Positions 4,641 through 37,297 of a stretch of DNA of 64,000 nt are shown in pieces; positions within the stretch are counted from its first letter, which is position 1, and every line of letters begins with the position of its first letter. This DNA comes from Vulcanimicrobiota bacterium. Its GTDB lineage: Bacteria > Vulcanimicrobiota > Vulcanimicrobiia > Vulcanimicrobiales > Vulcanimicrobiaceae. The notes beneath the pieces were generated by a model that did no database searches, was not told the origin of the DNA, and saw nothing but the letters and a program-made list of their open reading frames with translations. The stretch covers positions 62,001 to 126,000 of the forward strand of contig DAHUZB010000028.1 of the NCBI GenBank assembly GCA_027306785.1. The letters run 5' to 3'. The position numbers were made by a program, and so were the translations under genes.

Positions 4641-5113
4641 CGGTTGAAATCCGACGGTTTGAGCTCGTCGAGGAATTTCTTGAACTTCGCCGTCTCGGTG
4701 TCGTCGACGGGTTTTTTCTCGGCGCTCGCCTCTTCCAGCACGATCTTGTCGGAAACGTAGATCGGCGCATTCATGCGCAGCGCGAGCGCGATTCCGTCGG
4801 ACGGACGCGAATCGATCTCTTGCAGTTCGCCGTCGGAGCGCACGATGAGCTTGGCGAAAAACGTGGAGTCTTTGATGTCGTGGATGATCACCTGCTCGAG
4901 CGATGCGTCGAGCGTTTCGAGGATGCTGCGCATCAGATCGTGCGAGAGCGGGCGGGGGACGGGCGCGCCTTCCAGAGCCAAGGCGATCGCGGTCGCTTCG
5001 AACGGACCGATCAAGATCGGAAGGTAGTGGGCCCCGTCCATATCCTTGAGGATGACCACGGGATCGTGCGTGAGCAGGTCGATGCCGAGTTTGTCGACCT
5101 TCATTTGGCGCAT
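4637..5113 (-). CDS. Bifunctional nuclease family protein (DUF151/BFN)
   Basis: The 158-residue product has the whole DUF151 core: 'PVVILKDMDGAHYLPILIGP' followed by 'FEATAIALALEGAPVPRPLS' and 'HDLMRSILETLD', then 'SRPSDGIALALRMNAPIYVS'. Members bind or cut nucleic acid (plant BFN) and are common single genes in many bacteria. The cellular role is uncertain. The first ATG (5113) has GGA a few bases in front. An ATG three codons later is possible. The gene is coupled to the VOC-fold gene by a GTGA overlap and is divergent from ychF. Confidence 0.85.
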   Translation of the reverse strand: MRQMKVDKLGIDLLTHDPVVILKDMDGAHYLPILIGPFEATAIALALEGAPVPRPLSHDLMRSILETLDASLEQVIIHDIKDSTFFAKLIVRSDGELQEIDSRPSDGIALALRMNAPIYVSDKIVLEEASAEKKPVDDTETAKFKKFLDELKPSDFNR

Positions 5114-5190
5114 AGCATCCTATCCGACGTTTCGAGAAGATTCTCTTGCCGTATCGTCCCGCCAAGGCGAGGAGGCGGCAAGGGGGGCAA

Positions 5191-5217
5191 ACGGCCCTAG
5201 GGCGAACCGAGGGCCGT
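5191..5217 (+). promoter_or_regulatory. Hairpin covering the ychF ribosome-binding site
   Basis: ACGGCCCT (5191-5198) pairs perfectly with AGGGCCGT (5210-5217) across an 11-nt loop. The 3' arm holds the GAGGG that should serve as the SD for the ATG at 5223. In mRNA the stem would mask the ribosome site. Confidence 0.5.
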
Positions 5218-5222
5218 TCATC

Positions 5223-6317
5223 ATGGCTCTTTCATGCGGCATCGTCGGCTTGCCCAACGTCGGCAAGTCCACCATCTTCAACGCCCTCACGCGCTCGGCG
5301 CAAGCTCTCGCCGCGAACTACCCGTTCGCGACCATCGAGCCGAACGTCGGCGAGGTCGCCGTGCCCGACGAGCGCCTGCACGTGCTCCAGCAGCTCGTGA
5401 GCGGCGAGCGCGTCGTCCCGGCGACCGTGAAATTCGTCGACATCGCGGGGCTCGTGCGGGGCGCGAGCGCGGGCGAGGGCCTGGGCAACGCCTTCCTGAG
5501 TCACATCCGCGAGACCGATGCGATCGCGATGGTCGTACGCTGCTTCGAAGACGCGAACGTGACCCACGTCGAGGGCAGCCCCGATCCCAAGCGCGACATC
5601 GAGATCATCGCGATCGAACTCGCGCTGGCCGACCTCGCGACGATGCAAAAACGCGTCGACAAGCTCGAGCGCGAGGCGCGTTCGAATCCCAAGCTCCGGG
5701 ACCGCCTGGAGGCCGCCAAGCGCCTCACCGCCTCGCTCGAAGCCGGTCGTCCGGCGCGCGTCTTCGGCCCCGAGTCCCCGGAGCACGAGGTCGCGCTCGA
5801 ATCGTTCCTGCTGACCGCCAAGCCGCTGCTCTACGTCGCCAACGTCGACGAGGCGCAGATCGGGGCGCCCGGGCCGCTCGTGTCGGCGGTGCGCGAGGTT
5901 GCCGTGAGCGAGGGCAGCCGGGTGGTCGTGCTCTCGGGCAAGATCGAATCGGAGCTCGCCGGGCTCTCCGACGAGGAGGCCAGGGAGTTCTGCTCCGAGC
6001 TCGGGATCGAGCGCAGCGGTCTCGATGAGTTGGCGCTGACCGCCTACGATCTGCTCGGCCTGATGACGTTTCTCACCGCGGGCGAAAAGGAAGTCCGGGC
6101 CTGGACGATCGCCAAAGGGACCAAGGCGCCGCAGGCGGCGGGCAAGATCCACAGCGATATCGAGCGCGGCTTCATCCGTGCCGAGATCGTGTCCTACGAT
6201 GATTACGTCGCCTTCAAGACCATGGACGCGATGCGCGCTGCCGGAAAAGTCCGAAGCGAGGGCAAGGAGTACGTGATGCAAGAGGGCGACGTCGTCAACT
6301 TCCGCTTCAACGTCTAG
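5223..6317 (+). CDS. ychF: Redox-regulated ATPase/GTPase YchF (Obg family, OLA1-like)
   Basis: The 364-residue length is normal for YchF. The P-loop is 'GLPNVGKST' (residues 9-17), followed by 'FATIEPNVG' and '[17 protein letters not shown]', the switch II region. The insert '[20 protein letters not shown]' is specific to YchF, and a C-terminal TGS domain ends in '[15 protein letters not shown]'. YchF hydrolyses ATP in preference to GTP and associates with ribosomes and the stress response. The ATG at 5223 is preceded by GAGGG inside a hairpin (5191-5217). gdhA follows 85 nt later. Confidence 0.95.
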
Positions 6318-6338
6318 CGTTTTGCCGTAATTTATCAA

Positions 6339-6385
6339 GGTGGAGCGGGCCTTTTTGCCCAATCGTCCAGGGTTTGAACTCCACC
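6339..6385 (+). promoter_or_regulatory. Inverted repeat in the gdhA leader
   Basis: GGTGGAG (6339-6345) pairs with CTCCACC (6379-6385), which directly precedes the GGAGG of the gdhA ribosome site. The loop contains a short GGGC-cttttt-GCCC hairpin. It could be a weak ychF terminator or a leader structure that affects gdhA translation. Confidence 0.3.
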
Positions 6386-6402
6386 GGAGGCTGTTTTAAT
6401 CT

Positions 6403-7662
6403 ATGACCACTGCTGTGCGAGAAGTCTCGGTTTTCGGAGACGGTATCGCTTACTTTAACGAAGCGGCCGATCTTCTCGAACTCGATGCCGGGATGCGCCG
6501 TATCCTGACGCATCCGTCGCGTCAGATCATTTTTTCGATCCCGTTCCAACGTGATAGCGGCGAGATGGAAGTCTTCACCGGCTACCGCGTGCAGTACAAC
6601 TTCGCGCGCGGTCCGGCCAAGGGCGGCATTCGCTTTCATCCGGGCGTGACGCTCGACGAAGTGACCGCACTCGCGTTCTGGATGACGTGGAAGTGCGCGG
6701 TGGTCGATCTGCCGTTCGGCGGCGGTAAAGGCGGCGTCACCTGCGACCCCGCGACGCTTTCGCAGAACGAACTCGAGCGTATCACGCGCCGCTATGCGGC
6801 CGAGCTCGTGGAAGTCGTGGGTCCGGATAAAGACGTTCCGGCGCCCGACGTGAACACGACGCCGCAAGTGATGGCGTGGTTCATGGACACGTACTCGATG
6901 CACGTGCGTCAGAACGTCCCCGGCGTCGTCACCGGCAAGCCGCTCGAAATCGGCGGTTCGCGCGGACGCGTCGAAGCAACCGGACGCGGCGTCACGATCT
7001 GCGCGCTCGACGAGATGGCGCAGATGGGCCTCGTTCCGGAGAAGACGAACATCGTCATCCAGGGCTTCGGCAACGTCGGTCTCTACGCGGCGAAACTCTT
7101 CGCCGAGCGCGGCTGCAAGGTCGTCGGTATCTCCGACGTCACCGGCGCCTACTACAACAAGGGCGGCATCGACATCCCCGCCGCGATCGAGCACACCTCG
7201 AAGCATCGCAATCTCGACGGCTTCAAGGGCGGCGATAAGATCAGCAACGGCGAGCTCCTCACGAGCGAGTGCGACGTGCTGGTTCCCGCAGCGCTCGAGA
7301 AGGTCTTCACCGCCGAGAACGCCTCGCACGTGAAAGCGAAGCTGATCGTCGAAGGCGCGAACGGACCGACCACGCCGGAAGCGGCGCGCACGTTCAAGCA
7401 GAACGGCATCCGCGTGATTCCCGACATCATGGCGAATGCGGGCGGCGTGACCGTCTCGTACTTCGAGTGGGTTCAGGATCGCATGGGCTACTTCTGGAAG
7501 GAATCCGAAGTCAACGAGAAGCTTGAGGACGTCATGCTCGCCAATCTCGGCGAACTGCGCGCGCTCAAGCAGAAGCACAACACGACGTTCCGCGTGGCCG
7601 CCTACGCGCTCGCGATCGATCGGGTTGTGAAAGCCCTCCGCCTCCGCGGCATCTACGCCTAG
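6403..7662 (+). CDS. gdhA: Glutamate dehydrogenase (Glu/Leu/Phe/Val dehydrogenase family)
   Basis: The 419-residue enzyme is the hexameric type that interconverts glutamate with 2-oxoglutarate and ammonia. Substrate-side residues are present: K73 in 'ARGPAKGGIRFHP', K97 in 'TWKCAVVDLP', and the catalytic K109 in 'PFGGGKGGV'. The Rossmann domain carries 'IQGFGNVGLYAAKLFAE'. The C-terminal 'IMANAGGVTVSYFEWVQD' is standard for the short NAD-type enzymes. The ATG at 6403 follows GGAGG with a long spacer (12 nt). It stands alone after ychF and ends in front of a duplicated hairpin region. Coenzyme choice cannot be read with certainty. Confidence 0.95.
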   Translation: MTTAVREVSVFGDGIAYFNEAADLLELDAGMRRILTHPSRQIIFSIPFQRDSGEMEVFTGYRVQYNFARGPAKGGIRFHPGVTLDEVTALAFWMTWKCAVVDLPFGGGKGGVTCDPATLSQNELERITRRYAAELVEVVGPDKDVPAPDVNTTPQVMAWFMDTYSMHVRQNVPGVVTGKPLEIGGSRGRVEATGRGVTICALDEMAQMGLVPEKTNIVIQGFGNVGLYAAKLFAERGCKVVGISDVTGAYYNKGGIDIPAAIEHTSKHRNLDGFKGGDKISNGELLTSECDVLVPAALEKVFTAENASHVKAKLIVEGANGPTTPEAARTFKQNGIRVIPDIMANAGGVTVSYFEWVQDRMGYFWKESEVNEKLEDVMLANLGELRALKQKHNTTFRVAAYALAIDRVVKALRLRGIYA

Positions 7663-7671
7663 GGCGATCTC

Positions 7672-7764
7672 GCGGCGCATCTGCGTCGTCGGCCCCGGTC
7701 TCGCGTACCGTTTGTACGCGTCGACCGGGGCCTTCTCGCATCTGCACCACGATATCGCCCTAGG
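7672..7764. repeat. Hairpin repeat, copy 1 (downstream of gdhA)
   Basis: This 93-bp unit is nearly identical to the one at 7800-7891. Its core is a long stem: GGCCCCGGTC (7691-7700) pairs with GACCGGGGCC (7723-7732). A nested GCGTAC/GTACGC stem closes a CGTTT loop. It lies between convergent genes and probably terminates transcription from gdhA. Confidence 0.8.
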
Positions 7765-7799
7765 CGGGCGTTAGCTGCGTGCATTCACGGCGTGCAGGC

Positions 7800-7891
7800 G
7801 CGGCGCAGCTGCGTCGTCGGCCCCGGCTCGCGTACCGTTTGTACGCTTCGACCGGGGCCTTCTCGCATCTGCACCATGATATCGGCTTAGG
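7800..7891. repeat. Hairpin repeat, copy 2 (reaches the stop codon of the next gene)
   Basis: This is a direct copy of 7672-7764 at a distance of 128 bp, with one deleted T and a few substitutions. The stem is GGCCCCGG (7819-7826) with CCGGGGCC (7852-7859) and the same inner GCGTAC/GTACGC hairpin. Its last bases include the stop codon of the minus-strand gene at 7887. It can serve as terminator for both convergent genes. Confidence 0.8.
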
Positions 7892-10037
7892 TTCCTTTGC
7901 CGGCGCCGATGTAGCGGATGAGTTTGACGTAGAGCGCGGGGACCGTTTGTAATCGGTTCGGGTTGCCGTAGACGACGTAGAGTTCGTTTGTTCCCTGAAA
8001 GTAGTGGAACGCGGCCGATAGGTTCGTCGCATTCGTGAACGTCGCGGTCGACCCGAGCGGTGCGTAGGCATACGGCTGCTCCGTTCCGATGATGCGACGC
8101 AGGCCGACGTCGACGGATACGGCGCGGTCGAGCTGATAGCTCAGGCTCGAACGCTCCAGCCACTGTGAGGTGTCGGGCTCGCTCGGGAGCGAGGACACAT
8201 ACGTGCTGTCGTCTCCTTCGAGGATGAGCGTCATGCGGCGCGAGAGCGGCAGCGAGACCGCACGCAGCCATGAATCGAGACGGCCGTGATAGTATGCGCC
8301 CGTCATATACATCAGCGTGGACGGATGCGACGTGTTCGCCGCATACTGCACCATCACACCGCTGCTGTTGTACGGGAGGAACCGTCGCTCGCAGGTCGCC
8401 GCGCGCGCGAGCGGCACACACGTTTGCAGCGAAGAGAGCCCCTGCATCGCGGTCACGCTGATCAGATCCTTGAAATCGACGCGTACGTTGTCGAAGAGAT
8501 CCGCCTGGTTCACCTCGCCGCCGGGAGCGTGGTAGCGATCGAGTTGCAGCGAGACCGCGGCATCGAGCACCTCGGCGCTTCGTGCAAAATCGAACTGCTT
8601 ATCGGCAACGCCCGTGTATCCGGCGATTCCGGGTTCGCCCGGCGGCTGATCGGCGTACCCGTCGGCCGGTGAGAATTGCGCTCCCATCCGTTGCAGCGCG
8701 AAGGCGACCGACGTGGTCGCCGTTTGGTAGCTTTCACCGAGAGAGCGATACTCGGCGTCGCTCGGCGACGTGACGGATGTTCCCGTTTCCGATGCGATAT
8801 CGGCGAATGACGTGAGGCGGCTGTTCGGGTTGAAGTACGAGATGCTCTCCTCGTCGACGAGATCGCGGAACGGCTTGCCGCCCGCAGCGGTGTCGACGGC
8901 GACGCGTTGCATGCCGACGGTGAGCTCTTGATGCCGGTCGCTCGCGAAGAGCGAAACGGCGCTGTCGTCGCGACCGTTCCCCGTTGCGGAGAAGGCACCG
9001 TATGAGATCGCTCCTCGGTGTCCCTCGGCACCGAGGCCATTCTTGAACGACGGGATGGCCGGCGTGTAGAGTACGCTCATCGGAGCGTTCAGATCGGTTT
9101 GCGCGCCGAAATTCGATGCGGCCTGGGTGAAGAACGGGCGTACCTCGGTATATCGCCGAGCGAATTCCGTCGGCGAGATCGATTGCTGGTCGGTCTCGAC
9201 GTTCGAGAAGTCCGGGTGAACCGTACCGAAGAGCGCGCTCGTGCCGGCGAACGGTATCGAGAAATCGACACCCGTGCGTACGAGCGATCCTCCTTGCGCG
9301 GGCGTAGCGGCTTGGCCGAGCCCGTAGATTTGCAACCGCGCTCGTCGGGCAGCGGCGCGCGTATCGTCGAGGCCGCCGATTCGGCCGCCGTAGCGAGCGT
9401 CGATAAATTGCGATTGGCCGGGAACAAGCTCCCAGACGAAGTTGCTATTCGAGGCGACGACGATGCGATGAAACTGCATCCGCCAATCGGCCGGCTTCTG
9501 CAGGTGCAGCGCATTGAGCGGGATCTCGAGAATTGCGATGTACCCGCCGTGCGTTCGTCGGCCGTACGCGAACCAGCTCGGCGCGTACGCCGAATTCTCG
9601 CTCGAGTATTGGTCGCGCGCCCCGAGCGGGTTCGCGGCAAACCAATAGGCGAAGCCGTTCAACCCGTTCGGCCAGATGTGCACCATCACGGCGTCACCGG
9701 CAAGGACGCCGCTTCCGTTCGTGAGCTGCGTCGCCTCAACGGGCTCGCGCTGCCGTGCATCGAATGCGACATACAGGTTGCCCGCGAAACGTCCGATGCG
9801 CACGATCGTATCCTCGTGCGCCCGCGTTCGGTCGGTTGCGTCGTAGCCGAGATGCACGACCGCGGCCGAGCTCCAGGCGCCGTCGAGCGCCGCATCAAAT
9901 GGCGGCTTGGCCGGAAGCCGCGGTATGCCGAGTGTCGGCGGGTGGTTGCTCCCGATGTCGGCGCGAGCGGCGATCGGCACCAGGCAGATCATCGCCGCGA
10001 AGGCAGTCATAAACGCAAGGCGCGGAAGGGCATTCAT
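7887..10037 (-). CDS. DUF5916-like protein with N-terminal CBM9-type domain, outer-membrane associated
   Basis: The protein has 716 residues from the ATG at 10037, with a signal peptide cleaved after about residue 26 ('AMICLVPIAARA'). Residues about 45-230 resemble a family 9 carbohydrate-binding-type beta sandwich ('PFDAALDGAWSSAAVVHLGY', 'LYVAFDARQREPVEA'). The segment 'VHPDFSNVETDQQSISPTEF' with 'RRYTEVRPFF' matches the DUF5916 signature (PDFS.VE.D ... E.RPFF). The remainder is rich in alternating beta strands, as expected for an outer-membrane barrel. The family is often linked to polysaccharide or surface structures, but no reaction is known. It is divergent from the LytS/LytTR pair, which may control it. 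Confidence 0.75.
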   Translation of the reverse strand: MNALPRLAFMTAFAAMICLVPIAARADIGSNHPPTLGIPRLPAKPPFDAALDGAWSSAAVVHLGYDATDRTRAHEDTIVRIGRFAGNLYVAFDARQREPVEATQLTNGSGVLAGDAVMVHIWPNGLNGFAYWFAANPLGARDQYSSENSAYAPSWFAYGRRTHGGYIAILEIPLNALHLQKPADWRMQFHRIVVASNSNFVWELVPGQSQFIDARYGGRIGGLDDTRAAARRARLQIYGLGQAATPAQGGSLVRTGVDFSIPFAGTSALFGTVHPDFSNVETDQQSISPTEFARRYTEVRPFFTQAASNFGAQTDLNAPMSVLYTPAIPSFKNGLGAEGHRGAISYGAFSATGNGRDDSAVSLFASDRHQELTVGMQRVAVDTAAGGKPFRDLVDEESISYFNPNSRLTSFADIASETGTSVTSPSDAEYRSLGESYQTATTSVAFALQRMGAQFSPADGYADQPPGEPGIAGYTGVADKQFDFARSAEVLDAAVSLQLDRYHAPGGEVNQADLFDNVRVDFKDLISVTAMQGLSSLQTCVPLARAATCERRFLPYNSSGVMVQYAANTSHPSTLMYMTGAYYHGRLDSWLRAVSLPLSRRMTLILEGDDSTYVSSLPSEPDTSQWLERSSLSYQLDRAVSVDVGLRRIIGTEQPYAYAPLGSTATFTNATNLSAAFHYFQGTNELYVVYGNPNRLQTVPALYVKLIRYIGAGKGT

Positions 10038-12252: not shown

Positions 12253-12552
12253 TTATGACGAACCGATCGATTCGGTCTCGTATCCGGCCTCTCTCCAGGC
12301 TGCGTAGCCGCCGGTGAGCGCGATCGTATCGTAGCCGCGCTCGCGGAGTTCGGTGGCGATACGCGAGCACGAGTTGCCGCTGCCGCAATAGAGCACCACG
12401 CGTTCGTCTTTCGAGAACGGCGGATGAGCCGCGAGCGCTTCGCCGTCTCGTCGCTCGGAGTGGGGGATTTGCCGATCGTCGGGTTTCTTGCGAATGTCGA
12501 TGATGCGCACGCCGTGTGCGTCGCGTAGATCCTGCGCGGATATCTGCTCCAT
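12253..12552 (-). CDS. Rhodanese-like domain protein
   Basis: The single-domain protein has 99 residues from the ATG at 12552 (AGGTG six bases upstream). It follows the rhodanese pattern: 'ISAQDLRDAHGVRIIDIRK', then 'VVLYCGSGNSCSRIATELRE' with the active-site Cys56, and 'GYDTIALTGGYAAWREAGY' at the end. The active loop is CGSGNS. The Arg that often ends the loop in sulfurtransferases is absent, so thiosulfate sulfurtransferase activity is uncertain. It may carry persulfide or serve as a redox or metal-binding domain. It is downstream of, and co-oriented with, the SGNH gene but separated from it by a strong terminator. Confidence 0.88.
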   Translation of the reverse strand: MEQISAQDLRDAHGVRIIDIRKKPDDRQIPHSERRDGEALAAHPPFSKDERVVLYCGSGNSCSRIATELRERGYDTIALTGGYAAWREAGYETESIGSS

Positions 12553-12610
12553 GCGCATCACCTACGCACTTCGCACGGTGCGAACCTGGCGCGGTAATCA
12601 TGCGAAAAAA

Positions 12611-24620: not shown

Positions 24621-26102
24621 ATGGACGGTACCCCCATGGCGAACATTGGATGGTCCGGCATTCTGCCGGAACTCGACCGCGATTCGATCGTCCCGCTCTA
24701 CCGGCAAATCTACGAGCATCTGCGCGAAGCGATCCTCGCGGGCACGTTGCCCGAATCGACACGCCTGCCGCCGGAACGCGCGATGGCGGACCGATTGAAC
24801 GTGAATCGCAGTACCATCGTGCATGCCTACCGCGAGCTGGTCGCCGACGGGCTGATCGAGCAGCGCGTCGGGTCGGGCTCGCGCGTGGTGCCGCAGCTTC
24901 GCGCCGGGCAGCCCGAACGTGCCGCGGGCGTACCCTGGTGGATCACCCTGCCGCCCTGGCGCGTCGGCGAATTTCCGAACATCCTCGGCGAGCTCGCGGC
25001 CAAGCAGGAGGCGGGACGCATCTCGTTCGTGCAGGGCGTCGCGCCGGACGAGCCGTCGCCGCTCGGCGAGCTCGCGCAATCCTTCGGCCGCGTCGCGAGC
25101 GATCCGCGCTTTATCCTGTCGTACGGGGACTCCGAAGGCTACGAGCCGTTGCGCGCGCTCGTCGCCGCGCGCATGAATGCGAGCGGCGCGACGAGCATCT
25201 CGCCCAAGAACGTGATCGTGCTCACCGGCTCGACGCAGGGCATCATGATCGTCGCGCAGAGCCTCGCCGAACCCGGCGACGAGATCATCGTCGAATCGCC
25301 GTCGTATCCCGGCGCGCTGCAGATCTTCCAGATCAACGGTCTGCGCGCGATTCCGGTACCGGTGGACGACGAGGGTATGCGCGTCGATCACGTCGAGGCG
25401 ATCCTGCGCACGCGACGGCCGCGCTTCATCTACACGATGCCGTCGCTGCACAATCCCACCAACGCGACGATGAATATGGATCGCCGCGAACGTCTGGCGA
25501 CGATCGCCAAACGCGCGGGCGTACCGATCATCGAGGACGATCCCTACGGTCCGCTCGCACGCGAACCGCTGCCGCCGCTCGTCTCGCTCGCGCCCGATCA
25601 CGTGGTGTACCTCTCCACGTTCTCTAAAACGGTCGCGCCGAGTCTGCGCGTCGGATGGCTCGCGGCGCCGCGCATGATCCTCGAACGGCTGCTGCTGCGA
25701 AAACAGGCCTACGACATGGCGACGAGCCTCTACGTCCAAGCCGCGGTGGTCGACTATCTGGAGCGCGGGTACGATGCGCACGTCGCGCAGCTGCGCGAGG
25801 AACTCTTGCTGCGTCGCGAGATCGCCGACGCCGCGATCGCCGAGCACTGGACGCAGAACGTGCGCGCGGTCGGTGCGCCGGGCGGATTCTATCTCTGGGC
25901 GGCGACGCCGCGCGAGGTGCGTGCGCGCGCATTGCTCGACGTGGCCGAGCGCATGGGGGCGTCGTTTCTCTTCGGCGAGGCGTTCTTCGCGGATTCGGGC
26001 GGCGACCATCACTTCCGGCTGGCGCTCACCGCCGTGCCGCGCGCCGAGATCGGCGAAGGCATCCGTCGCATCGGCGACGCGATCAAGCAGTTGCGCACGT
26101 GA
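24621..26102 (+). CDS. MocR-family (GntR plus aminotransferase) transcriptional regulator
   Basis: The product has up to 493 residues. The winged helix near residues 20-95 shows 'PLYRQIYEHLREAILAGTLP' and 'RLPPERAMADRLNVNRSTIV', a standard GntR head. The rest is a fold-type I aminotransferase domain ('ILSYGDSEGYEPLRALVA', 'PSYPGALQIFQINGLRAIPV', 'PSLHNPTNATM'). The PLP-binding Lys is in 'STFSKTVAPSLRVGW'. MocR proteins sense PLP or amino-acid derivatives. ATGs at 24621 and 24636 are both possible, with no clear SD. Its stop overlaps the GTG of mutY (GTGA), so the two are coupled. Confidence 0.92.
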   Translation: MDGTPMANIGWSGILPELDRDSIVPLYRQIYEHLREAILAGTLPESTRLPPERAMADRLNVNRSTIVHAYRELVADGLIEQRVGSGSRVVPQLRAGQPERAAGVPWWITLPPWRVGEFPNILGELAAKQEAGRISFVQGVAPDEPSPLGELAQSFGRVASDPRFILSYGDSEGYEPLRALVAARMNASGATSISPKNVIVLTGSTQGIMIVAQSLAEPGDEIIVESPSYPGALQIFQINGLRAIPVPVDDEGMRVDHVEAILRTRRPRFIYTMPSLHNPTNATMNMDRRERLATIAKRAGVPIIEDDPYGPLAREPLPPLVSLAPDHVVYLSTFSKTVAPSLRVGWLAAPRMILERLLLRKQAYDMATSLYVQAAVVDYLERGYDAHVAQLREELLLRREIADAAIAEHWTQNVRAVGAPGGFYLWAATPREVRARALLDVAERMGASFLFGEAFFADSGGDHHFRLALTAVPRAEIGEGIRRIGDAIKQLRT

Positions 26103-27019
26103 GCGCGGTCGCGCGCACGCGCGCGGCGCTGCTCGCGTGGTACCGGGGGCACGGCCGCGCGAATCTGCCGTGGCGCACCGTTCGCGATCCGTACTATACG
26201 CTCGTGAGCGAGTTCATGCTGCAGCAGACGCAGGTGGATCGGGTGGTGCCGAAGTTTCTCGCGTTCATCGAGCGCTTTCCCACGCTCGCGGCGCTCGCCG
26301 CATCGAGCACGGCGGAGGTCTTGCGACTCTGGCAAGGGCTCGGCTATAACTCGCGTGCGATTCGTCTGCGGGCCGTCGCGGTCGAGATCGTCGAGCGGTT
26401 CGGCGGAGCGATGCCGCGCGATGCCGATGCGCTGCGTTCGCTACCGGGGATCGGGCCCTACACCGTCGCCGCGATCCGCGCCTTCGGCTTCGATGAAGAC
26501 GATGCGCCGATCGATACCAACATCCGGCGGATCGTGCATCGGCTGTGCTTCGGCATCGAGTATCCGGCGCTCGCGAACGCCAAAGCGATCGACGCGCGCG
26601 CGAGAGAGCTTGCCGCGCCCGGCGAGGCGCACGATTGGAACTCGGCGTTGATGGATCTGGGCGCCACGCTCTGCACGGCGCGTGCGCCGAAATGTCTGCT
26701 CTGCCCGCTGCACGCCGCGTGCGCCGCCGCGCCGATCGATGCGACGCTCCTCGATGCGCGGCGGCGGGAGCATGCCAAAAAGCCGTCACCGCAAAATGCG
26801 ATTCCGTTCGAGCGCACCACCCGGTATGCGCGCGGACGCATCGTCGATCGGCTGCGCTCCCTCGCGCCCGGCGAACGGATATCTCTGCTCGATCTGCACC
26901 GCGATCTGCAACCGCTCTTACCCGAACGACCGTTGGAGGAGCTGGAACGTCTCGTGACCGTACTGGAACGAGACGGCCTCGTCGCATGCGACGGGGCATA
27001 TATCGCTCTACGTGATTAG
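26099..27019 (+). CDS. mutY: Adenine DNA glycosylase MutY, short form
   Basis: The 306-residue protein removes adenine opposite 8-oxoguanine. It has catalytic Glu38 in 'LVSEFMLQQTQVDRVVPKF', the helix-hairpin-helix 'LPGIGPYTVAAIRAF' and the essential Asp139 in 'APIDTNIRRIV'. The 4Fe-4S cluster is C-X6-C-X2-C-X5-C ('LCTARAPKCLLCPLHAAC'). After the cluster only about 95 residues remain, and they do not show the usual NUDIX-like 8-oxoG reader. This shortened form is also known from actinobacteria. The GTG start overlaps the MocR stop by 4 nt. Both frames fit well here. Confidence 0.92.
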   Translation: MSAVARTRAALLAWYRGHGRANLPWRTVRDPYYTLVSEFMLQQTQVDRVVPKFLAFIERFPTLAALAASSTAEVLRLWQGLGYNSRAIRLRAVAVEIVERFGGAMPRDADALRSLPGIGPYTVAAIRAFGFDEDDAPIDTNIRRIVHRLCFGIEYPALANAKAIDARARELAAPGEAHDWNSALMDLGATLCTARAPKCLLCPLHAACAAAPIDATLLDARRREHAKKPSPQNAIPFERTTRYARGRIVDRLRSLAPGERISLLDLHRDLQPLLPERPLEELERLVTVLERDGLVACDGAYIALRD

Positions 27020-31063: not shown

Positions 31064-32311
31064 ATGCGTGATCTCTTCGCCGGCCGCCGCGGACTCGTGG
31101 CGGCCGGTCTGCTCGTCGCCGAATTCGCGGCGGCGACGCAAGCCTTGGTGATCGCCACGATCATGCCGCGCATCGCCGCCGATCTCCGCGGCGTCGGACT
31201 CTACGGCGTCACGATCGGCGCGTTGGTCGTCGCGAGCGCGTTCGGGATGGCCTTTGCCGGCCCGCTCGCCGATCGCTTCGGCACGCGGCGGGTGCTCGCG
31301 TCCGCCTTCGTCTGCGTCGCGTGCGGCTTGCTCTGTTCGGCGCTCGCACGATCGATGCCGCAGTTGGCGGCGGCGCGTGCGATCGAAGGCGTGGGCGGCG
31401 GACTCGATTACGCGGCGTCGTTCGCCGCGATCGCCAAGCACTTCGAAGAAGGGCGGCGCGCGCGCATATTCGCGTGGCTCTCCGCGATGTGGGTGCTGCC
31501 GGCGCTCGTCGGGCCGAGCTTGGGTGCCGCGATCGCGTCGACGATCGGGTGGCGCTTTGCATTTGCGGCGTTTCTTCCGCTGATCGCGCTCGCCGCGCTG
31601 CTGGTACTGCCCTCGCTCGGCGAGCTCGGCGAGACGGTGCGCGAGGACGCCGATTCGCTCGCGGCACTGCGCCTGCTCGTTTCGCGCGCCACGCTCGCGA
31701 TGCGCGGAGAACGGCATGCGGCCTTCGTCGCCTTCGGTTTACTGCAAGCGGCGTTCTTCGGGGCCGACGCATACGTGACGCTCAATCTCACCGCGCTGCG
31801 CGGGGCGACGCTTGCGCTCGCGGGGCTGTGCGTGACGCTCGGAGCGCTCGGCTGGTCGGCAGCGAGCGCCCTGCAACCTGCGCTTCTCGAGCGCTTCGGG
31901 ACGCGCGTGCTCGTGATCGCGGGCGCCCTCTGCGAACTCGCGGCCTGTGCCGGGATGATCGCGATCGCGCTACGCGTTCCGCTCGCGTGGGCGTTTCCGG
32001 CATGGGCGATCGCGGGCGCGGGTATCGGGCTCGCCTATCCGACGCTCACTCTTGCGGCGCTCGCGGGAGCCGATCCGGGCAGCGAAGGCGCAATCTCTTC
32101 GGCGACGCTGCTCGCGGGCACGATCGGCATGGCGCTCGGGGTGCTCCTGTGCGGCGTTCCGATTGCCTATGCGGCGCACGCGCACGGGATGCTCGAACCC
32201 GCGATGATCGCGACGTTCACGATCGCGGCGGCGGCGGCGCTCGTCTTACTGCCGGTCGCGGCGACGCGCTTGCGGCGGGCGGGCGATCAAAGATCGACGA
32301 CGGCGTCGTAG
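31064..32311 (+). CDS. MFS transporter (drug/solute antiporter type)
   Basis: The 415-residue protein has about 12 membrane helices. The loop between helices 2 and 3, 'GPLADRFGTRRVLASAFV', is the MFS signature. Helix 1 contains 'AEFAAATQALVIATIMPRIA' and helix 5 'PALVGPSLGAAIASTIGWRF', as in DHA-type exporters. The substrate cannot be named. It starts 8 nt after the second S9 peptidase. Its last 25 nt overlap the convergent cysteine dioxygenase gene, so the C-terminal 'GDQRSTTAS' is antisense to that gene's end. Confidence 0.9.
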   Translation: MRDLFAGRRGLVAAGLLVAEFAAATQALVIATIMPRIAADLRGVGLYGVTIGALVVASAFGMAFAGPLADRFGTRRVLASAFVCVACGLLCSALARSMPQLAAARAIEGVGGGLDYAASFAAIAKHFEEGRRARIFAWLSAMWVLPALVGPSLGAAIASTIGWRFAFAAFLPLIALAALLVLPSLGELGETVREDADSLAALRLLVSRATLAMRGERHAAFVAFGLLQAAFFGADAYVTLNLTALRGATLALAGLCVTLGALGWSAASALQPALLERFGTRVLVIAGALCELAACAGMIAIALRVPLAWAFPAWAIAGAGIGLAYPTLTLAALAGADPGSEGAISSATLLAGTIGMALGVLLCGVPIAYAAHAHGMLEPAMIATFTIAAAAALVLLPVAATRLRRAGDQRSTTAS

Positions 32312-32805
32312 TGCGGCTGCATCGCGCGGCAGAGACCGGTCAGATCGTCGACGATCGTGAACGTGCCGAGCGGCTTGGCATAGAGCTGCAGCGAGTAGGT
32401 CCCGATCTCGCCGAGATTTCGCACGCGATGGAGTTCGCGCGCAGTGAGCCGGTGGTCGAGCGCGCCCGCCTCGAAGTGCGCGGTGCCGCTATGCCGCAGT
32501 CGGGCGAGCGGCTCGCGCTCGTCGAGGCGGTCGTAGTTCTCCACGTCGAGCGATCCTTCGAGCACGATCACCCAACAGCGCGAGTCGCCGTGATCGTGAA
32601 TCGGGCTCACCGAGCCCGGCGCCCACAGCATAGCGATCACTTCGTACTCGTCGGTCTTCTCGAGCAGCGTGCGCGTGTACGCGCGCGGCGCGAGCGGCAT
32701 GAAGGCGCGATAGCGCGTAAACGCCTCGATGCCGCGCCGTAGCGCGCGGACGAACTGCGGAACCTCGATGACGTCGGCGAGCGTACGTTCGTTCATGTCG
32801 ATCAT
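32287..32805 (-). CDS. Cysteine dioxygenase (type I, Arg-type)
   Basis: The 172-residue cupin oxidises cysteine to cysteine sulfinate with a non-haem Fe(II). The ligands are His70 and His72 ('SPIHDHGDSRCWV') and His126 ('ELHRVRN'). Arg45 ('YTRTLLEK') matches the Arg that binds the cysteine carboxylate. Cys77 and Tyr142 match the Cys-Tyr crosslink pair of the mammalian enzyme. In the Ser-His-Tyr triad the middle His is replaced by Gln140 ('YSLQLY'). The ATG overlaps the flavoprotein stop (ATGA), so it is the third gene of a coupled operon. Confidence 0.92.
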   Translation of the reverse strand: MIDMNERTLADVIEVPQFVRALRRGIEAFTRYRAFMPLAPRAYTRTLLEKTDEYEVIAMLWAPGSVSPIHDHGDSRCWVIVLEGSLDVENYDRLDEREPLARLRHSGTAHFEAGALDHRLTARELHRVRNLGEIGTYSLQLYAKPLGTFTIVDDLTGLCRAMQPHYDAVVDL

Positions 32806-34157
32806 GATGCCTCAACGGTGAGAGCGGCGCGGTGTTCGCGCAGGATGTCGCGCGCGATCGCGGCGGCGTGTCGCGTAATCTCCGGAATCGCGGTTGTCTC
32901 GTACCAGCGGCCGCGCACGAGCGGACCCATCGCGAAGGCGCGCGCGTCGGGCCGACCGTTCGCGTCGAGCGTGTTGAACGTCTCGGAGATCGCGATCCCG
33001 AGCCGCAGCGGATCCGCCGTGATGATGCCGCCCGCGAGCGCGCTGCGCACGAGCGGCGATGCGACGCGGGTGAGATCGGCGTTCGGTCCGGTGCAGTTGA
33101 CGGCGCCCGCCACGCGCAGGATGCCGCGTGCTCCGCGCTCGTCGAGCTCGAGCGCGAAGCCGCGGGTCGCCGCGGTCGCGCCGACGATGCGGGCGCGATG
33201 CACCACGATGCGACCGGCCGCGCGCAAACGCGCGTAGACGGCGTAGGTCGCGGGCGGAACGCGATAACGGTGGATCGCCCACAGCGATTCGCAGTGGCGG
33301 AGAAAGCGGCGTCGCTCGCGCGGATTCCAGGCCGCCCAGATGTGCGGCGTGACCGGGCGTAGCGCCTCGACGACCGCACGCCAGTCGCCCGGATAGTCGT
33401 CGATCGTGCGCCGAAGCGAGCGTAGCAGCGTGTAAGGCGTGCTCGTATCGAGGCGAGCGAGAACCGTCGCATCGCCGCGCGCGCGCGGATCTTCGACGAA
33501 AGGAACGCGCCCGTGGCGCGAGATGAGGTGAATGCGTCCGCTCGCGGCGTGTTCGTCGAGCAGCGCGATCACGTCCATCGCGGTGAGGCGACTGCCGATG
33601 AGCGCGATGTCGCCGCTTCGAAAGCGGCCGACGTCGGCGCGCCACGGATCGTTCGCGAAATCGGCGGACGCGCGTATGCTCTCGGGGAGAAAACTCGCGT
33701 CGGGTGCGAAGTTCCCCATCGCGAAGACGACGCGCCGCGTGCGGTGGACACGCGCTTCGGCATCGACGAGAACGAAGCCGTCGCGTTCGCGCGCGATCTC
33801 CGCGATCTCGACCGGTGCATGGCGAATGCCGCGATGCGCGGCCAGTGCGCCCGCCGCGGTTGCGCGCATGTACGCGCCGTAGCGCGCGCGGCAGATCAGC
33901 GCATCGTCGGGTTCATCGACGAGATAGCGTTTGAGATGCGAGGGATCGCCCGGTACGGCCGACATCGCGCGCACCGGGCCGTTGAGGAGCAGGCTCGCCG
34001 ATTGCGGCGCGTAGGCGGTGCCGGGGCCGAGTCCCGACGGATCGAACACGCACGCGGTAAAATCCGGCGGCGCGCTCGCCGCGAGGGCGATCGCGAGCGC
34101 CGTTCCGGAGACGCCGCCGCCGATGACGGCGACGTCGAGCTGGCCGCGTGGATCCAT
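32802..34157 (-). CDS. YdhS-like FAD/NAD(P)-binding protein (COG4529 type)
   Basis: The 451-residue protein starts with a dinucleotide fold, 'VAVIGGGVSGTALAIALAAS'. It continues with 'GLGPGTAYAPQSASLLLNGP' and 'RTRRVVFAMGNFAPDASFL', all in the pattern of the FAD/NAD(P)-binding family related to YdhS. A second motif, 'GDIALIGSRLTAMDVIALL', suggests binding of NAD(P). 'GAVNCTGPNADLTRVASPLV' lies toward the C-terminus. The reaction is unknown; amine or sulfur oxidation would suit the family. It begins 6 nt after the ATP-grasp gene and overlaps cysteine dioxygenase by 4 nt, which argues for a shared pathway. Confidence 0.85.
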   Translation of the reverse strand: MDPRGQLDVAVIGGGVSGTALAIALAASAPPDFTACVFDPSGLGPGTAYAPQSASLLLNGPVRAMSAVPGDPSHLKRYLVDEPDDALICRARYGAYMRATAAGALAAHRGIRHAPVEIAEIARERDGFVLVDAEARVHRTRRVVFAMGNFAPDASFLPESIRASADFANDPWRADVGRFRSGDIALIGSRLTAMDVIALLDEHAASGRIHLISRHGRVPFVEDPRARGDATVLARLDTSTPYTLLRSLRRTIDDYPGDWRAVVEALRPVTPHIWAAWNPRERRRFLRHCESLWAIHRYRVPPATYAVYARLRAAGRIVVHRARIVGATAATRGFALELDERGARGILRVAGAVNCTGPNADLTRVASPLVRSALAGGIITADPLRLGIAISETFNTLDANGRPDARAFAMGPLVRGRWYETTAIPEITRHAAAIARDILREHRAALTVEAS

Positions 34158-34163
34158 CTGTCT

Positions 34164-35441
34164 CTAGGTATCGGCAGCTTTGCGGCGGTCGATCATCTGC
34201 TCGACCGCGCGATAAATCCTCGGGATGTAGCGATGTTTGTAAGGATACCGTTCGATTGGATCGCTCGTGTGCACGAGCATCGCCGGATCGGCTTCGAAAA
34301 CGAGCACGCGCCCGTCGGGTGCGATCGTGCAATCGATCCCGAAGTATTCGAGACCCACGGCGCTCGCGATCTCGCGCAGCGCCGCCGCGCGCGCGCCGTC
34401 GAAGACGCCGTGGACGTCGGCGAGAAAGCGTGCTTCCTCGTCGCGCATCCAGGCGTTCTCCGCCATCGGGGCGTTGTAGTAGTGAATCATCCAGTTCGGC
34501 GAGATCGCGAGGTGGACCGCGAACGGCTCGCCGTCGACGAAGACGACCCGGTACTTACGGTAATAGCCGTCGGCGCTGCGGTAGTCGACGAAGGGGCTCG
34601 CGTAGTAGGCGTCGCTCGGCGCGCGCTCGGTGTAGGCAGCGCACTGTGCCGCCGTATCGAGTCGCTCGAGTCCGTGCCCCGCGTGCGAACCGACCGGCCG
34701 CACAATAATCGGAAAGGCGAACGGCACCTCGCCGTGCGCGAGCGCCTCGCGCGAACGTTCCGCGATCGGCGCGACGACGGCGCCGGTCGCGCGCAGCGTC
34801 TCGCCCAACTGCATGCGCGCGGTCGCGAGCACGCGCGCGGAGAGATTGAGAAACGGGCGCTGCGCGGCGCGAGCGACGAGATCGGCGAGCGCGAGATACG
34901 GCAGCGCGTCGGGGGATTCGGCGATCGTGTTCCAGATCACGTCGTGCTCGGGGATCGCCTCCGCGAGTAGGCGCGGGGTATCGAGCAGATAGAGCTTGTG
35001 GACGGTCGTGCTCGTCCGATCGAAGAGAAAGTCGACCGGAATGTTCGCTTGCCAGTCGCCCGGAGCGCAGAGCACGAGCACGCGGCGGCGTTCGTTCGGG
35101 GCGGCGCTCGAGAAGAGGCGTCGCGTTTCGAGAACGCGACGCTGATGCGCGAGCGCGCGCTCGCGATCGCCGGTCATCTGCAGCAGTTCGGAGAGCGCGA
35201 GGTTCGAGGTGAGGTCGCCCGGTTCGTCCGCGAGCACGCCCTCGTGTTCGCCGATTGCTCCCGGCGCGTCGCCGGTTTCGTAGAGCAGCTGAGCGAGGTT
35301 TTGGCGTAGCGCGGGAACCCGCGGAAAACGCGCGATCGCGGCGCGGAAAACGGCGATCGCCTCGGTTACGCGCCCCTGCGCGCGCAGCTCGATGGCGCGC
35401 GCATTGGCCTCGGCTGCGGTGGCGGGCTCGCTCGGCATCAT
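34164..35441 (-). CDS. TPR plus ATP-grasp ligase-like protein
   Basis: The 425-residue protein has N-terminal tetratricopeptide repeats (about residues 5-110: 'ANARAIELRAQGRVTEAIAV', 'LRQNLAQLLYETGDAPGAIG'). An ATP-grasp fold follows: 'FAFPIIVRPVGSHAGHGLER' is the nucleotide loop and 'APDGRVLVFEADPAMLVHTS' the Mg-binding end. Such enzymes join a carboxylate to an amine, thiol or hydroxyl through an acyl phosphate. Neither partner can be named. The ATG at 35441 (second ATG at 35438) has no strong SD; a longer frame overlaps the divergent nth start. It leads the operon with the flavoprotein and cysteine dioxygenase. Confidence 0.8.
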   Translation of the reverse strand: MMPSEPATAAEANARAIELRAQGRVTEAIAVFRAAIARFPRVPALRQNLAQLLYETGDAPGAIGEHEGVLADEPGDLTSNLALSELLQMTGDRERALAHQRRVLETRRLFSSAAPNERRRVLVLCAPGDWQANIPVDFLFDRTSTTVHKLYLLDTPRLLAEAIPEHDVIWNTIAESPDALPYLALADLVARAAQRPFLNLSARVLATARMQLGETLRATGAVVAPIAERSREALAHGEVPFAFPIIVRPVGSHAGHGLERLDTAAQCAAYTERAPSDAYYASPFVDYRSADGYYRKYRVVFVDGEPFAVHLAISPNWMIHYYNAPMAENAWMRDEEARFLADVHGVFDGARAAALREIASAVGLEYFGIDCTIAPDGRVLVFEADPAMLVHTSDPIERYPYKHRYIPRIYRAVEQMIDRRKAADT

Positions 35442-35494: not shown

Positions 35495-36190
35495 ATGGCA
35501 AAGATTCCGTTTCCGACCCGCCGGGTGACCCGCGCGCGTGCGCTCGAAGAGCTTTCGATCCTCGAGCGCACCTATCCGCACGCGGTGACCGCGCTCGACT
35601 ACCGCAACCCCTACGAACTGCTGATCGCGGTGATCCTTTCGGCGCAGTGTACCGACGCGCGCGTGAATCTCACCACGCCTGCGCTCTTCGCGAAGTATCC
35701 GACGCCGCATGCGCTCGCCCGCGCGAAGCAGCACGACGTCGAGGCGATCGTCAAATCGTGCGGGTTCTATCGGATGAAAGCGAAGAACATCATCAGCGCC
35801 GCGCGCGATCTGGACGAAAGGCACGACGGCGTGGTGCCGCGCGAGCGCGAAGCGCTCGAGGCGCTTGCCGGCGTCGGGCGCAAGACCGCCAACGTGGTGA
35901 TGTCGGTCGCGTTCGAGGAGGCGGCGTTCGCCGTGGATACGCACGTCTTCCGTGTCGCGCATCGCTTGGGCCTGACGCTCGGTACCACGCCGCGACGCGT
36001 GGAAGAAGATGTCACCAAGCTCGTTCCCGAAGCCAAGTGGCGCTTCGCGCATCATTGGCTGATCCTCCACGGGCGCGCTCTCTGCAAGGCGCCGACCCCG
36101 CTCTGTTCGCGGTGTCCCGTCGCGGAGATCTGTCCGACGCCGCCGATCATCGCCAAAATGAATCGTGCCCGCGCTTCGGGCAAGCGCTGA
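35495..36190 (+). CDS. nth: Endonuclease III
   Basis: The 231-residue DNA glycosylase/AP lyase removes oxidised pyrimidines. It has the helix-hairpin-helix 'LAGVGRKTANVV' with the nucleophile Lys130, catalytic Asp148 in 'FAVDTHVFRVAHRLGLTLG', and a 4Fe-4S cluster of four Cys in C-X6-C-X2-C-X5-C ('LCKAPTPLCSRCPVAEIC'). The start 'MAKIPFPTRR' at 35495 gives normal length. It is divergent from the ATP-grasp operon (53 bp between starts) and convergent with the next gene, with only three bases between the stops. Confidence 0.96.
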   Translation: MAKIPFPTRRVTRARALEELSILERTYPHAVTALDYRNPYELLIAVILSAQCTDARVNLTTPALFAKYPTPHALARAKQHDVEAIVKSCGFYRMKAKNIISAARDLDERHDGVVPREREALEALAGVGRKTANVVMSVAFEEAAFAVDTHVFRVAHRLGLTLGTTPRRVEEDVTKLVPEAKWRFAHHWLILHGRALCKAPTPLCSRCPVAEICPTPPIIAKMNRARASGKR

Positions 36191-36193
36191 TCG

Positions 36194-36712
36194 CTAGAGC
36201 GCGAGCGGGCCCGAGCCGTCGAGGTGCGGGGGGCGCGGCAGTTCCGCATCGTGCGCGATCGCTTTCAACAGCGACGACGCGGTCAGCGCCTCTCCGTATG
36301 CCGCATCGGTTGAGATCTTCGAGATATTGAAGAGGGCCGGTACCGGGCTCGAGAGATCGAACTGGTAGTCGCCGTCGAGTCCGAGCCCGTGCACGCGAAC
36401 GAGCTGGTGCACCTCGTCGAGATCCAGGCTCACGCGTTTCTCGCCGAAGCGCACGCGCAGACGTAACGGCCGCTCCAGGCGCACGACCTTGGCGCCGTTC
36501 GGGCCGAGGATCGCGTTCAAACGTTTCGCGCCCGCCTGCAGGTGCTCGTAGAAGAGCCGCAGCGATTCTTCGGCGTCCTCCGGAGCGCGCGGGGCATTCT
36601 CGGCCGCGGCGTCGTCGATCGCGCGCGCGAGTTCGCGTCGAGCGCGAATGCGGCTCGCGGCTTCGACGATCGGATTTTGGGCCGTGAATTCCGGCTTCAT
36701 CGGGTCTGCCAT
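36194..36712 (-). CDS. Hypothetical protein, 172 residues
   Basis: I do not recognise a family. The N-terminal half is helical and charged ('ASRIRARRELARAIDDAAAE', 'LRLFYEHLQAGAKRLNAILG'). A beta-rich middle follows ('AKVVRLERPLRLRVRFGEKR', 'VSLDLDEVHQLVRVHGLG'), and the end is 'LPRPPHLDGSGPLAL'. It has no signal peptide or membrane helix, so it should be cytoplasmic. Base composition is like its neighbours. It is convergent with nth and lies just downstream of the lysine-rich protein gene, behind a terminator at 36728-36762. Confidence 0.75.
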   Translation of the reverse strand: MADPMKPEFTAQNPIVEAASRIRARRELARAIDDAAAENAPRAPEDAEESLRLFYEHLQAGAKRLNAILGPNGAKVVRLERPLRLRVRFGEKRVSLDLDEVHQLVRVHGLGLDGDYQFDLSSPVPALFNISKISTDAAYGEALTASSLLKAIAHDAELPRPPHLDGSGPLAL

Positions 36713-36792: not shown

Positions 36793-37194
36793 TTACGGCT
36801 TCTTGGTCGCCTTCGGGGCCGGCTTCTTGGTCGACTTCATCGACGTAGCCGCCTTCTTGGTCGTCTTCATCGACTTCGTCGCCTTGGTCGACTTCTTAGC
36901 GGCCTTGGCCGTTTTGGTCGCCTTCTTGGCAGCCTTCTTGTCGGCCGTCTTCTGGAGGACCGGCTTCTTGGTCGCCTTCGGCGCGGGCTTGGTCGACTTC
37001 ATCGACTTGGCCGCCTTCTTGGTCGACTTCATCGACTTCATCGACGTAGCCGTCTTCTTGGTGGCCTTGGCCGACTTCATCGTGGCCTTGGTCGCCGTCT
37101 TCGCGGCCGGAGCCGTCTTCGCGGTACCGGCAGCCATGGCCGGAGCGGCCATCAGGAATGCCGCCGCGAGAAGCGTTGCGAGCGTCTTTTTCAT
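36793..37194 (-). CDS. Secreted lysine/alanine/threonine-rich repeat protein
   Basis: The 133-residue protein has a clean signal peptide ('MKKTLATLLAAAFLMAAPAM' then A-A-G). The remaining ~110 residues are nearly all Lys, Ala, Thr, Ser, Met and Pro, in loose repeats such as 'KSMKSTKKA', 'KATKKP' and 'KKAAKKATK'. It has no Cys, Trp or Tyr and very few acidic residues. It resembles histone H1-like tails but is exported, so it may bind acidic polymers such as extracellular DNA, teichoic-like or polyphosphate material. The ribosome site AAGGAGGT with a 7-nt spacer is the strongest in the window, hinting at high expression. It ends in a strong terminator. Confidence 0.8.
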   Translation of the reverse strand: MKKTLATLLAAAFLMAAPAMAAGTAKTAPAAKTATKATMKSAKATKKTATSMKSMKSTKKAAKSMKSTKPAPKATKKPVLQKTADKKAAKKATKTAKAAKKSTKATKSMKTTKKAATSMKSTKKPAPKATKKP

Positions 37195-37297
37195 GTAGTA
37201 CACCTCCTTCTGTAGCAAAATCTCCCGCGCGAGGGTGCGCGCGGCCGCAGCTACGTTCCCATGAACGCAGCGCTGGGCCTTAAAGTTCGCATAAGGA

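What the first reader, a model, noticed from the sequence alone, without database searches (positions are those of the whole stretch)
32287..35441. Candidate new pathway: TPR/ATP-grasp, YdhS-like flavoprotein and cysteine dioxygenase
Three genes are packed with a 6-nt gap and a 4-nt overlap. A ligase of unknown partner, a flavoprotein of unknown reaction and cysteine dioxygenase together could make or modify a cysteine-derived compound, for example a peptide or conjugate with a sulfinate. No standard taurine or sulfite genes are beside them.
Basis: inference. Interest (0 to 1): 0.7.

Follow-up and report, generated by a model that had tools for sequence, protein, structure and literature searches.

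The report
Cysteine-oxidation operon with ligase recruit
A bacterium of the little-studied phylum Eremiobacterota carries a conserved operon in which an enzyme that oxidises cysteine sits beside a flavin enzyme from a sulfur-linked family of unknown reaction, later joined by an amide-forming ligase that moved in from an amino-acid decarboxylase operon; together they predict an undescribed sulfur-metabolite pathway whose product is not known.

Summary
The three genes are real: TPR/ATP-grasp ligase (GRASP, 34164-35441), flavoprotein (FLAV, 32802-34157) and cysteine dioxygenase (CDO, 32287-32805), minus strand, 6-nt gap and 4-nt overlap. The set is conserved between nth and mutY in several Eremiobacterota genera. 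But the set has a history. FLAV-CDO is the older core (23 of 24 Eremiobacterota-type contigs; linkage in at least three places on the FLAV tree, in both gene orders). GRASP is a single later recruit: its orthologs sit beside a PLP decarboxylase, and in the six three-gene genomes checked that block survives, decarboxylase intact, GRASP gone. FLAV's nearest solved relative is the aspartate N-hydroxylase FzmM, and many relatives sit beside sulfur genes (cysC, ssuD, cysTWA, taurine transport, persulfide dioxygenase); one Eremiobacterota pair lies in an sbp-cysTWA-CDO-FLAV-TauE array. Best reading: CDO makes cysteine sulfinate, an aspartate isostere; FLAV oxygenates it or its product; GRASP probably forms an amide in the same pathway. 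Reactions and product are inferred. An undescribed operon, not shown to be a new kind of chemistry.

The parts
34164..35441 (-). TPR + ATP-grasp ligase (GRASP), first gene of the operon
   Evidence: TPR Pfam hits; AF2 model pLDDT 90 matches D-Ala-D-Ala ligase/LysX ATP-grasp folds; conserved R248, G251/H253/G255, K296-Y-R298, D370, E383; tree places it in one FLAV-linked clade, 98/95
32802..34157 (-). FAD/NADPH class-B-type flavoprotein (FLAV; PF13454, FzmM superfamily)
   Evidence: Pfam E 4.1e-26; AF2 pLDDT 92.7, best PDB match FzmM aspartate N-hydroxylase 8cp2, Foldseek E 2.6e-21; profile E 1.6e-21
32287..32805 (-). Cysteine dioxygenase (CDO), Arg-type, with Cys/Tyr crosslink residues and Gln in place of the triad His
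   Evidence: PF05995 E 1.7e-13; PDB match rat CDO E 5.9e-10; only CDO homolog found in this genome
35442..35494 (.). short divergent spacer between the operon and nth; probable operon promoter region (not tested)
   Evidence: gene calls
35495..36190 (+). nth-like gene (endonuclease III), flanking marker of the conserved site; not part of the function
   Evidence: HhH-GPD and HHH domains; same neighbour in relatives
26099..27019 (+). mutY-like gene, marker of the other side of the conserved site
   Evidence: Pfam HhH-GPD; same in relatives

Best explanation
A sulfur-metabolic operon. (1) CDO oxidises free L-cysteine to cysteine sulfinate (from family and active-site residues; about 85% likely). 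(2) FLAV, an FAD/NADPH class-B-type flavoprotein of the superfamily that contains the aspartate N-hydroxylase FzmM, oxygenates cysteine sulfinate (an isostere of aspartate) or its direct product. N-oxygenation, giving a hydroxylamine or oxime that can shed sulfite, is somewhat more likely than S-oxygenation to cysteate (inferred; about 55% for 'acts on the CDO product', about 30% for N-oxygenation specifically). (3) GRASP, recruited once from an operon with a PLP amino-acid decarboxylase that the genome still has, forms an amide between a carboxylate and an amine or amino acid of the same pathway (ligase activity about 80%; same pathway about 55%). In relatives without GRASP, FLAV-CDO alone would be a cysteine/sulfur turnover step, in keeping with sulfate-transport and TauE neighbours. 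The end product is unknown.
For: Three-gene set at one syntenic site in G000, G001, G002, G008, G011, G015 and in MAG loci L105, L106, L107, L109. FLAV-CDO adjacent in 23 of 24 Eremiobacterota-type loci. CDO linkage in at least three separate places on the FLAV tree, with order FLAV>CDO in one subclade and CDO>FLAV in another. One pair inside sbp-cysT-cysW-cysA-CDO-FLAV-TauE (L072). Acidimicrobiia L155: CDO-rhodanese divergent from DsrE-TusA-FLAV-MBL/rhodanese. FLAV relatives by cysC, a CBS-type gene, taurine transport, cysTWA, a DmoA-type monooxygenase, ssuD, cysD. FLAV closest to FzmM by structure and profile, catalytic Asn conserved. GRASP: one clade beside FLAV, sister to the decarboxylase-linked clade; decarboxylase block without GRASP in the six genomes checked; close decarboxylase absent from GRASP-less relatives searched.
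Against: No reaction was measured. Two genomes (G032, L104) keep GRASP-FLAV after losing CDO at the site, so GRASP-FLAV can persist without it. Most FLAV and most GRASP homologs lie away from CDO, and five of eight plasmid FLAV loci inspected last had no sulfur neighbour. FzmM's substrate Arg13 and its RxxRNxxR helix motif are not kept in FLAV, so the aspartate-like substrate is only an analogy. GRASP's move could be neutral. The decarboxylase is nearest to aromatic-acid and diaminobutyrate decarboxylases, less to cysteine-sulfinate decarboxylase. The triad His of CDO is Gln.
Confidence: 0.4

Rival explanations
1. Two independent modules. FLAV-CDO does cysteine/sulfur turnover (sulfinate, then sulfite). 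GRASP serves only the decarboxylase pathway (amine to amino acid ligation, as MfnA/MfnD do in methanofuran synthesis by general knowledge) and came to lie next to FLAV by neutral rearrangement.
For: GRASP's ancestral partner is the decarboxylase, still encoded. Genomes with GRASP plus decarboxylase but no FLAV or CDO match exist (G022, G029, G012), and FLAV-CDO without GRASP is common. GRASP-FLAV persists without CDO in G032 and L104.
Against: After the single move GRASP has stayed upstream of FLAV on the same strand in all 12 loci seen, with gaps of 3-8 nt in most, and the CDOs of this clade share a distinctive His155-to-Gln change, a hint of co-adaptation (or only of common descent).
Confidence: 0.3
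2. FLAV is an S-oxygenase: it turns sulfinates to sulfonates (cysteine sulfinate to cysteate, hypotaurine to taurine). The operon makes cysteate or taurine, perhaps capped by GRASP, as a solute or sulfur store.
For: The enzyme class includes S-oxygenating FMOs (general knowledge). FLAV relatives lie beside taurine and alkanesulfonate genes. A group II decarboxylase is present in the genome.
Against: The nearest solved structures are N-hydroxylases. Relatives sit by sulfonate uptake and degradation genes rather than synthesis genes. The decarboxylase is not closest to cysteine-sulfinate decarboxylase.
Confidence: 0.15
3. FLAV handles persulfide or sulfite in reactive-sulfur detoxification as a reductase-type flavoprotein rather than an oxygenase, and CDO clears excess cysteine; no conjugate is made.
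For: Acidimicrobiia FLAV lies in a DsrE-TusA-MBL/rhodanese cluster; a cyanobacterial FLAV lies beside an MBL-fold protein similar to it and O-acetylhomoserine sulfhydrylase; Rrf2 regulators adjacent in several loci.
Against: No redox-disulfide motif was seen in the alignment; the fold with its helical substrate domain is that of N-hydroxylases; many FLAV loci lack persulfide genes.
Confidence: 0.1

Closest known systems
Aspartate N-hydroxylases FzmM/CreE (and PcxL of the same group)
   Same: Same arrangement of FAD domain, NADPH domain and helical domain; best structural and profile match by far; conserved Asn (N59 = FzmM N62); profile-profile probability 98.4 over 440 columns
   Different: FLAV is about 150 residues or more shorter, lacks Arg13 and the RxxRNxxR motif of the aspartate chamber, has no CreD-type lyase neighbour, and is paired with CDO or sulfur genes
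Mammalian-type cysteine dioxygenase (CDO1)
   Same: Iron His triad, R60, C93 and Y157 equivalents
   Different: Triad His155 is Gln in the GRASP-linked clade; embedded in an operon with a flavoprotein and a ligase
SbzM-homolog cupin plus ATP-grasp clusters of actinomycetes (PMC9113183, Fig. 7D)
   Same: Cysteine-oxidising cupin next to an ATP-grasp ligase; product unknown there too
   Different: SbzM rearranges cysteine to a sulfonamide aldehyde; here a CDO-family enzyme with a PF13454 flavoprotein in another phylum. SbzM itself was not compared by sequence
Predicted oxygenase-cupin/ATP-grasp peptide systems (PMC2922099)
   Same: A cupin, a monooxygenase domain and ATP-grasp ligases in one operon
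   Different: Other cupin and monooxygenase families in the passages read; no CDO with PF13454 protein
MfnA/MfnD (tyrosine decarboxylase plus tyramine-glutamate ATP-grasp ligase)
   Same: Logic of a group II decarboxylase coupled to an ATP-grasp amide ligase, as in the ancestral GRASP-decarboxylase pair (recalled, not tested)
   Different: TPR fusion; substrates unknown; here the ligase has left the decarboxylase locus

Membership tests
Cysteine dioxygenase (PF05995) | Profile match above the gathering score | tested here: met
   50.9 bits against a cut-off of 23
Cysteine dioxygenase (PF05995) | Three-His iron site, Arg60 and Tyr157 equivalents | tested here: met
   Alignments
Cysteine dioxygenase (PF05995) | Ser-His-Tyr triad (typical of characterised members) | tested here: not met
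   His155 position is Gln in window, L063, L064, L066, L067, L068, L105, L106; CDOs not linked to GRASP have His. The alignment shows that chain 5efu is rat CDO with the same change. It lowers certainty about activity, not about kinship
Cysteine dioxygenase (PF05995) | Oxidises L-cysteine to the sulfinate | not testable with these tools
   Needs an enzyme assay
Aspartate N-hydroxylase (FzmM/CreE) | FAD and NADPH Rossmann domains with a helical domain, catalytic Asn | tested here: met
Aspartate N-hydroxylase (FzmM/CreE) | Aspartate entry chamber (Arg13, Arg409/Arg412/Asn413/Arg416) | tested here: not met
   R13 is Ser/Ala; the RxxRNxxR motif does not align. FLAV has its own conserved Arg residues (R260, R267, R297, R299). 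Not filed as an aspartate N-hydroxylase
Aspartate N-hydroxylase (FzmM/CreE) | Nitrosuccinate-lyase (CreD) type neighbour | tested here: not met
   A lyase-family gene overlaps the Streptomyces FzmM homologs; none here
ATP-grasp carboxylate-amine ligase | ATP-grasp fold | tested here: met
   Foldseek E about 5e-11 to D-Ala-D-Ala ligase and LysX
ATP-grasp carboxylate-amine ligase | Acidic Mg/ATP ligands (D...E-x-N) | tested here: inconclusive
   D370 and E383 kept; the usual Asn is Asp (E-A-D-P) in most of this subfamily
SbzM-type sulfonamide-forming cupin | Sequence kinship to SbzM and sulfonamide product | not tested
   SbzM sequence not at hand; no SbzM structure appeared

The most novel reading that the evidence does not exclude
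FLAV N-hydroxylates cysteine sulfinate (as FzmM does aspartate), and GRASP captures or cyclises the N-oxygenated sulfinate, or joins it to an amine made by the distant decarboxylase, giving a new class of N-O- or S-N-bearing sulfur metabolite in Eremiobacterota; PF13454 flavoproteins in sulfur-assimilation operons would be the sulfur branch of the aspartate N-hydroxylase superfamily.
Probability: 0.15. Interest if true: 0.78.

Novelty: new variant of a known kind. Interest (0 to 1): 0.5.

Why it matters
It ties a large uncharacterised flavoprotein family (PF13454; 'FAD/NAD(P)-binding protein', matches in 554 plasmid records) to sulfur metabolism and to the aspartate N-hydroxylase fold, and gives a concrete substrate guess (cysteine sulfinate) that one assay can test. 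It also gives a clear case of a ligase gene leaving one operon and settling in another, and a candidate metabolite from a mostly uncultured phylum.

Tried and rejected
Calling FLAV a plain S-oxygenating FMO from Pfam alone: dropped once structure and profile favoured FzmM. Filing FLAV as an aspartate N-hydroxylase: rejected because substrate residues and the CreD-type neighbour are missing. Treating the MFS gene (31064-32311) as the pathway's exporter: its 3' end overlaps CDO tail to tail and it is absent at several loci (L066, L068, L106). Reading the G031 locus with CDO near a decarboxylase (L102) as support: the genes lie on opposite strands and the decarboxylase is cut by the contig end. 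Literature searches for YdhS, PF13454/COG4529, CDO with ATP-grasp, and CDO in Eremiobacterota gave no paper on this operon. phmmer of FLAV alone against the PDB found nothing; only the profile did. tblastn of CDO against plasmids gave two weak hits. A first GRASP tree was discarded because rows had been trimmed to single domains.
Full report
OBSERVATION. Pfam gives CDO_I (E 1.7e-13), NAD_binding_9 (4.1e-26) and TPR repeats. The ATP-grasp half has no Pfam hit, but an AlphaFold2 model (pLDDT 90) matches D-Ala-D-Ala ligase, LysX and ArgX. The window lies in a 3.1-Mb draft genome; its near relatives are Candidatus Eremiobacterota MAGs.

CDO. Against rat CDO the iron ligands H86/H88/H140, R60, C93 and Y157 are present. 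R60 binds the carboxylate of free cysteine (general knowledge), so free L-cysteine rather than a peptide is the likely substrate. The GRASP-linked CDOs share Gln in place of H155; CDOs without GRASP have His. The alignment of solved chain 5efu shows rat CDO with the same change.

CONSERVATION. Searches of 60 relatives and gene calling show GRASP-FLAV-CDO in G000, G001, G002, G008, G011 and G015, between nth and mutY. G032 has GRASP-FLAV without CDO there; its CDO lies elsewhere beside a second FLAV. A scan of the genome collection with the FLAV alignment (79 loci) plus HMM searches found CDO next to FLAV in 23 of 24 Eremiobacterota-type loci (exception L104) and GRASP upstream in 8. Some of these loci are the same genomes as G001, G002, G015 and G026. 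Of 55 loci of other lineages only one (Acidimicrobiia L155) had a CDO in the stretch held. The scan used two conserved peptides, so it is a sample, not a census.

FLAV-CDO IS THE CORE. On the FLAV tree CDO linkage occurs in the main Eremiobacterota clade, in the deep branch of L073 (100/100 with L076) and in L155. Within the main clade one subclade has FLAV before CDO and another CDO before FLAV. Repeated coupling with changed order argues for functional linkage. Neighbours differ: nth/mutY; genes that read as glycine-cleavage genes (L120, L121, L122, L124, L070; named from sequence starts, not scanned); a sulfate transporter array sbp-cysT-cysW-cysA-CDO-FLAV followed by TauE (L072).

GRASP IS A RECRUIT. 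GRASP homologs are multi-copy in the family. The nearest ones stand beside a PLP group II decarboxylase (PF00282), in a block whose other members include a GGDEF protein, an M48 peptidase and an amino-acid-kinase-type protein and genes that read as gltX and glmU (not scanned). In G000, G001, G002, G008, G011 and G015 the same block exists with the decarboxylase but without GRASP. G026 shows the 'before' state: FLAV-CDO at nth/mutY (L069) and GRASP beside the decarboxylase (L089). A maximum-likelihood tree makes the 12 FLAV-linked GRASPs one clade (98/95), sister to the decarboxylase-linked clade (95/90), so a single move; CDO was lost once afterwards (L065 with L104, 100/99). The close decarboxylase occurs in the GRASP genomes searched (G007 excepted) and not in GRASP-less ones. 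It is nearest to DOPA and diaminobutyrate decarboxylases, less to cysteine-sulfinate decarboxylase. A Rhizobium tumorigenes plasmid also has a TPR-grasp gene two genes from a PLP decarboxylase.

WHAT FLAV IS. Its model (pLDDT 92.7) matches FzmM first (Foldseek E 2.6e-21), then the N-hydroxylases DesB, PvdA, SidA and DfoA. An HMM of the family hits FzmM at 1.6e-21, the next solved protein at 5e-07. FzmM's Asn62 in front of the flavin (PMC10404684) is FLAV's invariant N59. FzmM's substrate Arg13 is Ser/Ala and its RDLRNEVR helix does not align, so FLAV is a superfamily member, not an aspartate N-hydroxylase. FzmM is inhibited by sulfate bound at its Arg cluster, and PcxL of the same group makes an oxime of a phosphonate (PMC10404684). 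Cysteine sulfinate and taurine are isosteres of such substrates; that is an analogy, not a test.

SULFUR CONTEXT. FLAV relatives lie beside APS kinase (Pseudomonas, overlapping; Sinobacteraceae L146), a CBS-type PLP enzyme and taurine transport (Mesorhizobium), cysA-type and Rrf2 genes (M. albiziae; Shinella has cysT and sbp), a DmoA-type monooxygenase (Labrys), an MBL-fold protein and O-acetylhomoserine sulfhydrylase (cyanobacterium), ssuD (Mesorhizobium and Paracoccus plasmids, immediately upstream of FLAV), cysD plus a sulfonate transporter (Streptomyces), and DsrE-TusA-MBL/rhodanese (Acidimicrobiia). Some further neighbours were named only from their sequence starts. Five other plasmid loci inspected had no sulfur neighbour, so the link is strong but not universal.

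MECHANISM. Shown: gene set, conservation, history, folds, conserved residues. Inferred: CDO makes cysteine sulfinate; FLAV oxygenates it or a close product; GRASP makes an amide with an amine or amino acid of the same pathway, perhaps one made by the distant decarboxylase. N-oxygenation is favoured slightly over S-oxygenation by fold kinship, and would fit the TauE neighbours, since an oxime of sulfinopyruvate could shed sulfite. The main rival is that GRASP is a functionally separate passenger.

NOVELTY. Cupin plus ATP-grasp clusters have been predicted in actinomycetes (SbzM homologs, PMC9113183) and oxygenase-cupin-ATP-grasp operons elsewhere (PMC2922099). No paper found describes a CDO/PF13454 pair or this operon, within an open-access library only. 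Verdict: an undescribed variant of a known kind of system, worth an assay; interest 0.5.

Noticed in passing
window 36194-36712 (-): A 172-aa protein (MADPMKPEFTAQNPIVEAASRIRAR...) without any Pfam match is conserved next to nth in relatives with this site.
   Followed up: no
window 36811-37197 (-): Short secreted-looking protein: signal-peptide-like start followed by a Lys/Ala-rich repetitive tail, present near the same site in relatives with differing repeat number; no Pfam match.
   Followed up: partly
L193-L198 compared with L085-L092: Gene relocation with a preserved old site: GRASP missing from an otherwise intact decarboxylase block; a clean comparative case.
   Followed up: yes
L223 (Rhizobium sp. 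CCGE531 plasmid) 3953-9353: A FLAV relative lies beside a class I tRNA-ligase paralog, a cupin, a phytanoyl-CoA dioxygenase-type gene and a SidA/IucD/PvdA monooxygenase; looks like the non-ribosomal peptide system predicted in PMC2922099.
   Followed up: no
L114, L116, L117, L162: Four contigs of one MAG (JAJYRI, DX1.bin104) each carry a version of the FLAV-CDO site; the bin is probably a mixture of strains or species.
   Followed up: no
L078, L079, L080: CDO homologs without FLAV lie beside a class V-type aminotransferase (L079, L080) or a gcvPB-like gene (L078), suggesting other fates of cysteine sulfinate in the same family.
   Followed up: no
window 32287-32805 (-), residue C77: The CDO keeps the Cys of the Cys-Tyr crosslink; from memory most bacterial CDOs have Gly there, so these may be useful bacterial models of the crosslinked form. 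Not checked against bacterial structures.
   Followed up: no
window 12253-12558 (-): A small rhodanese-domain protein (PF00581), about 20 kb from the operon.
   Followed up: partly
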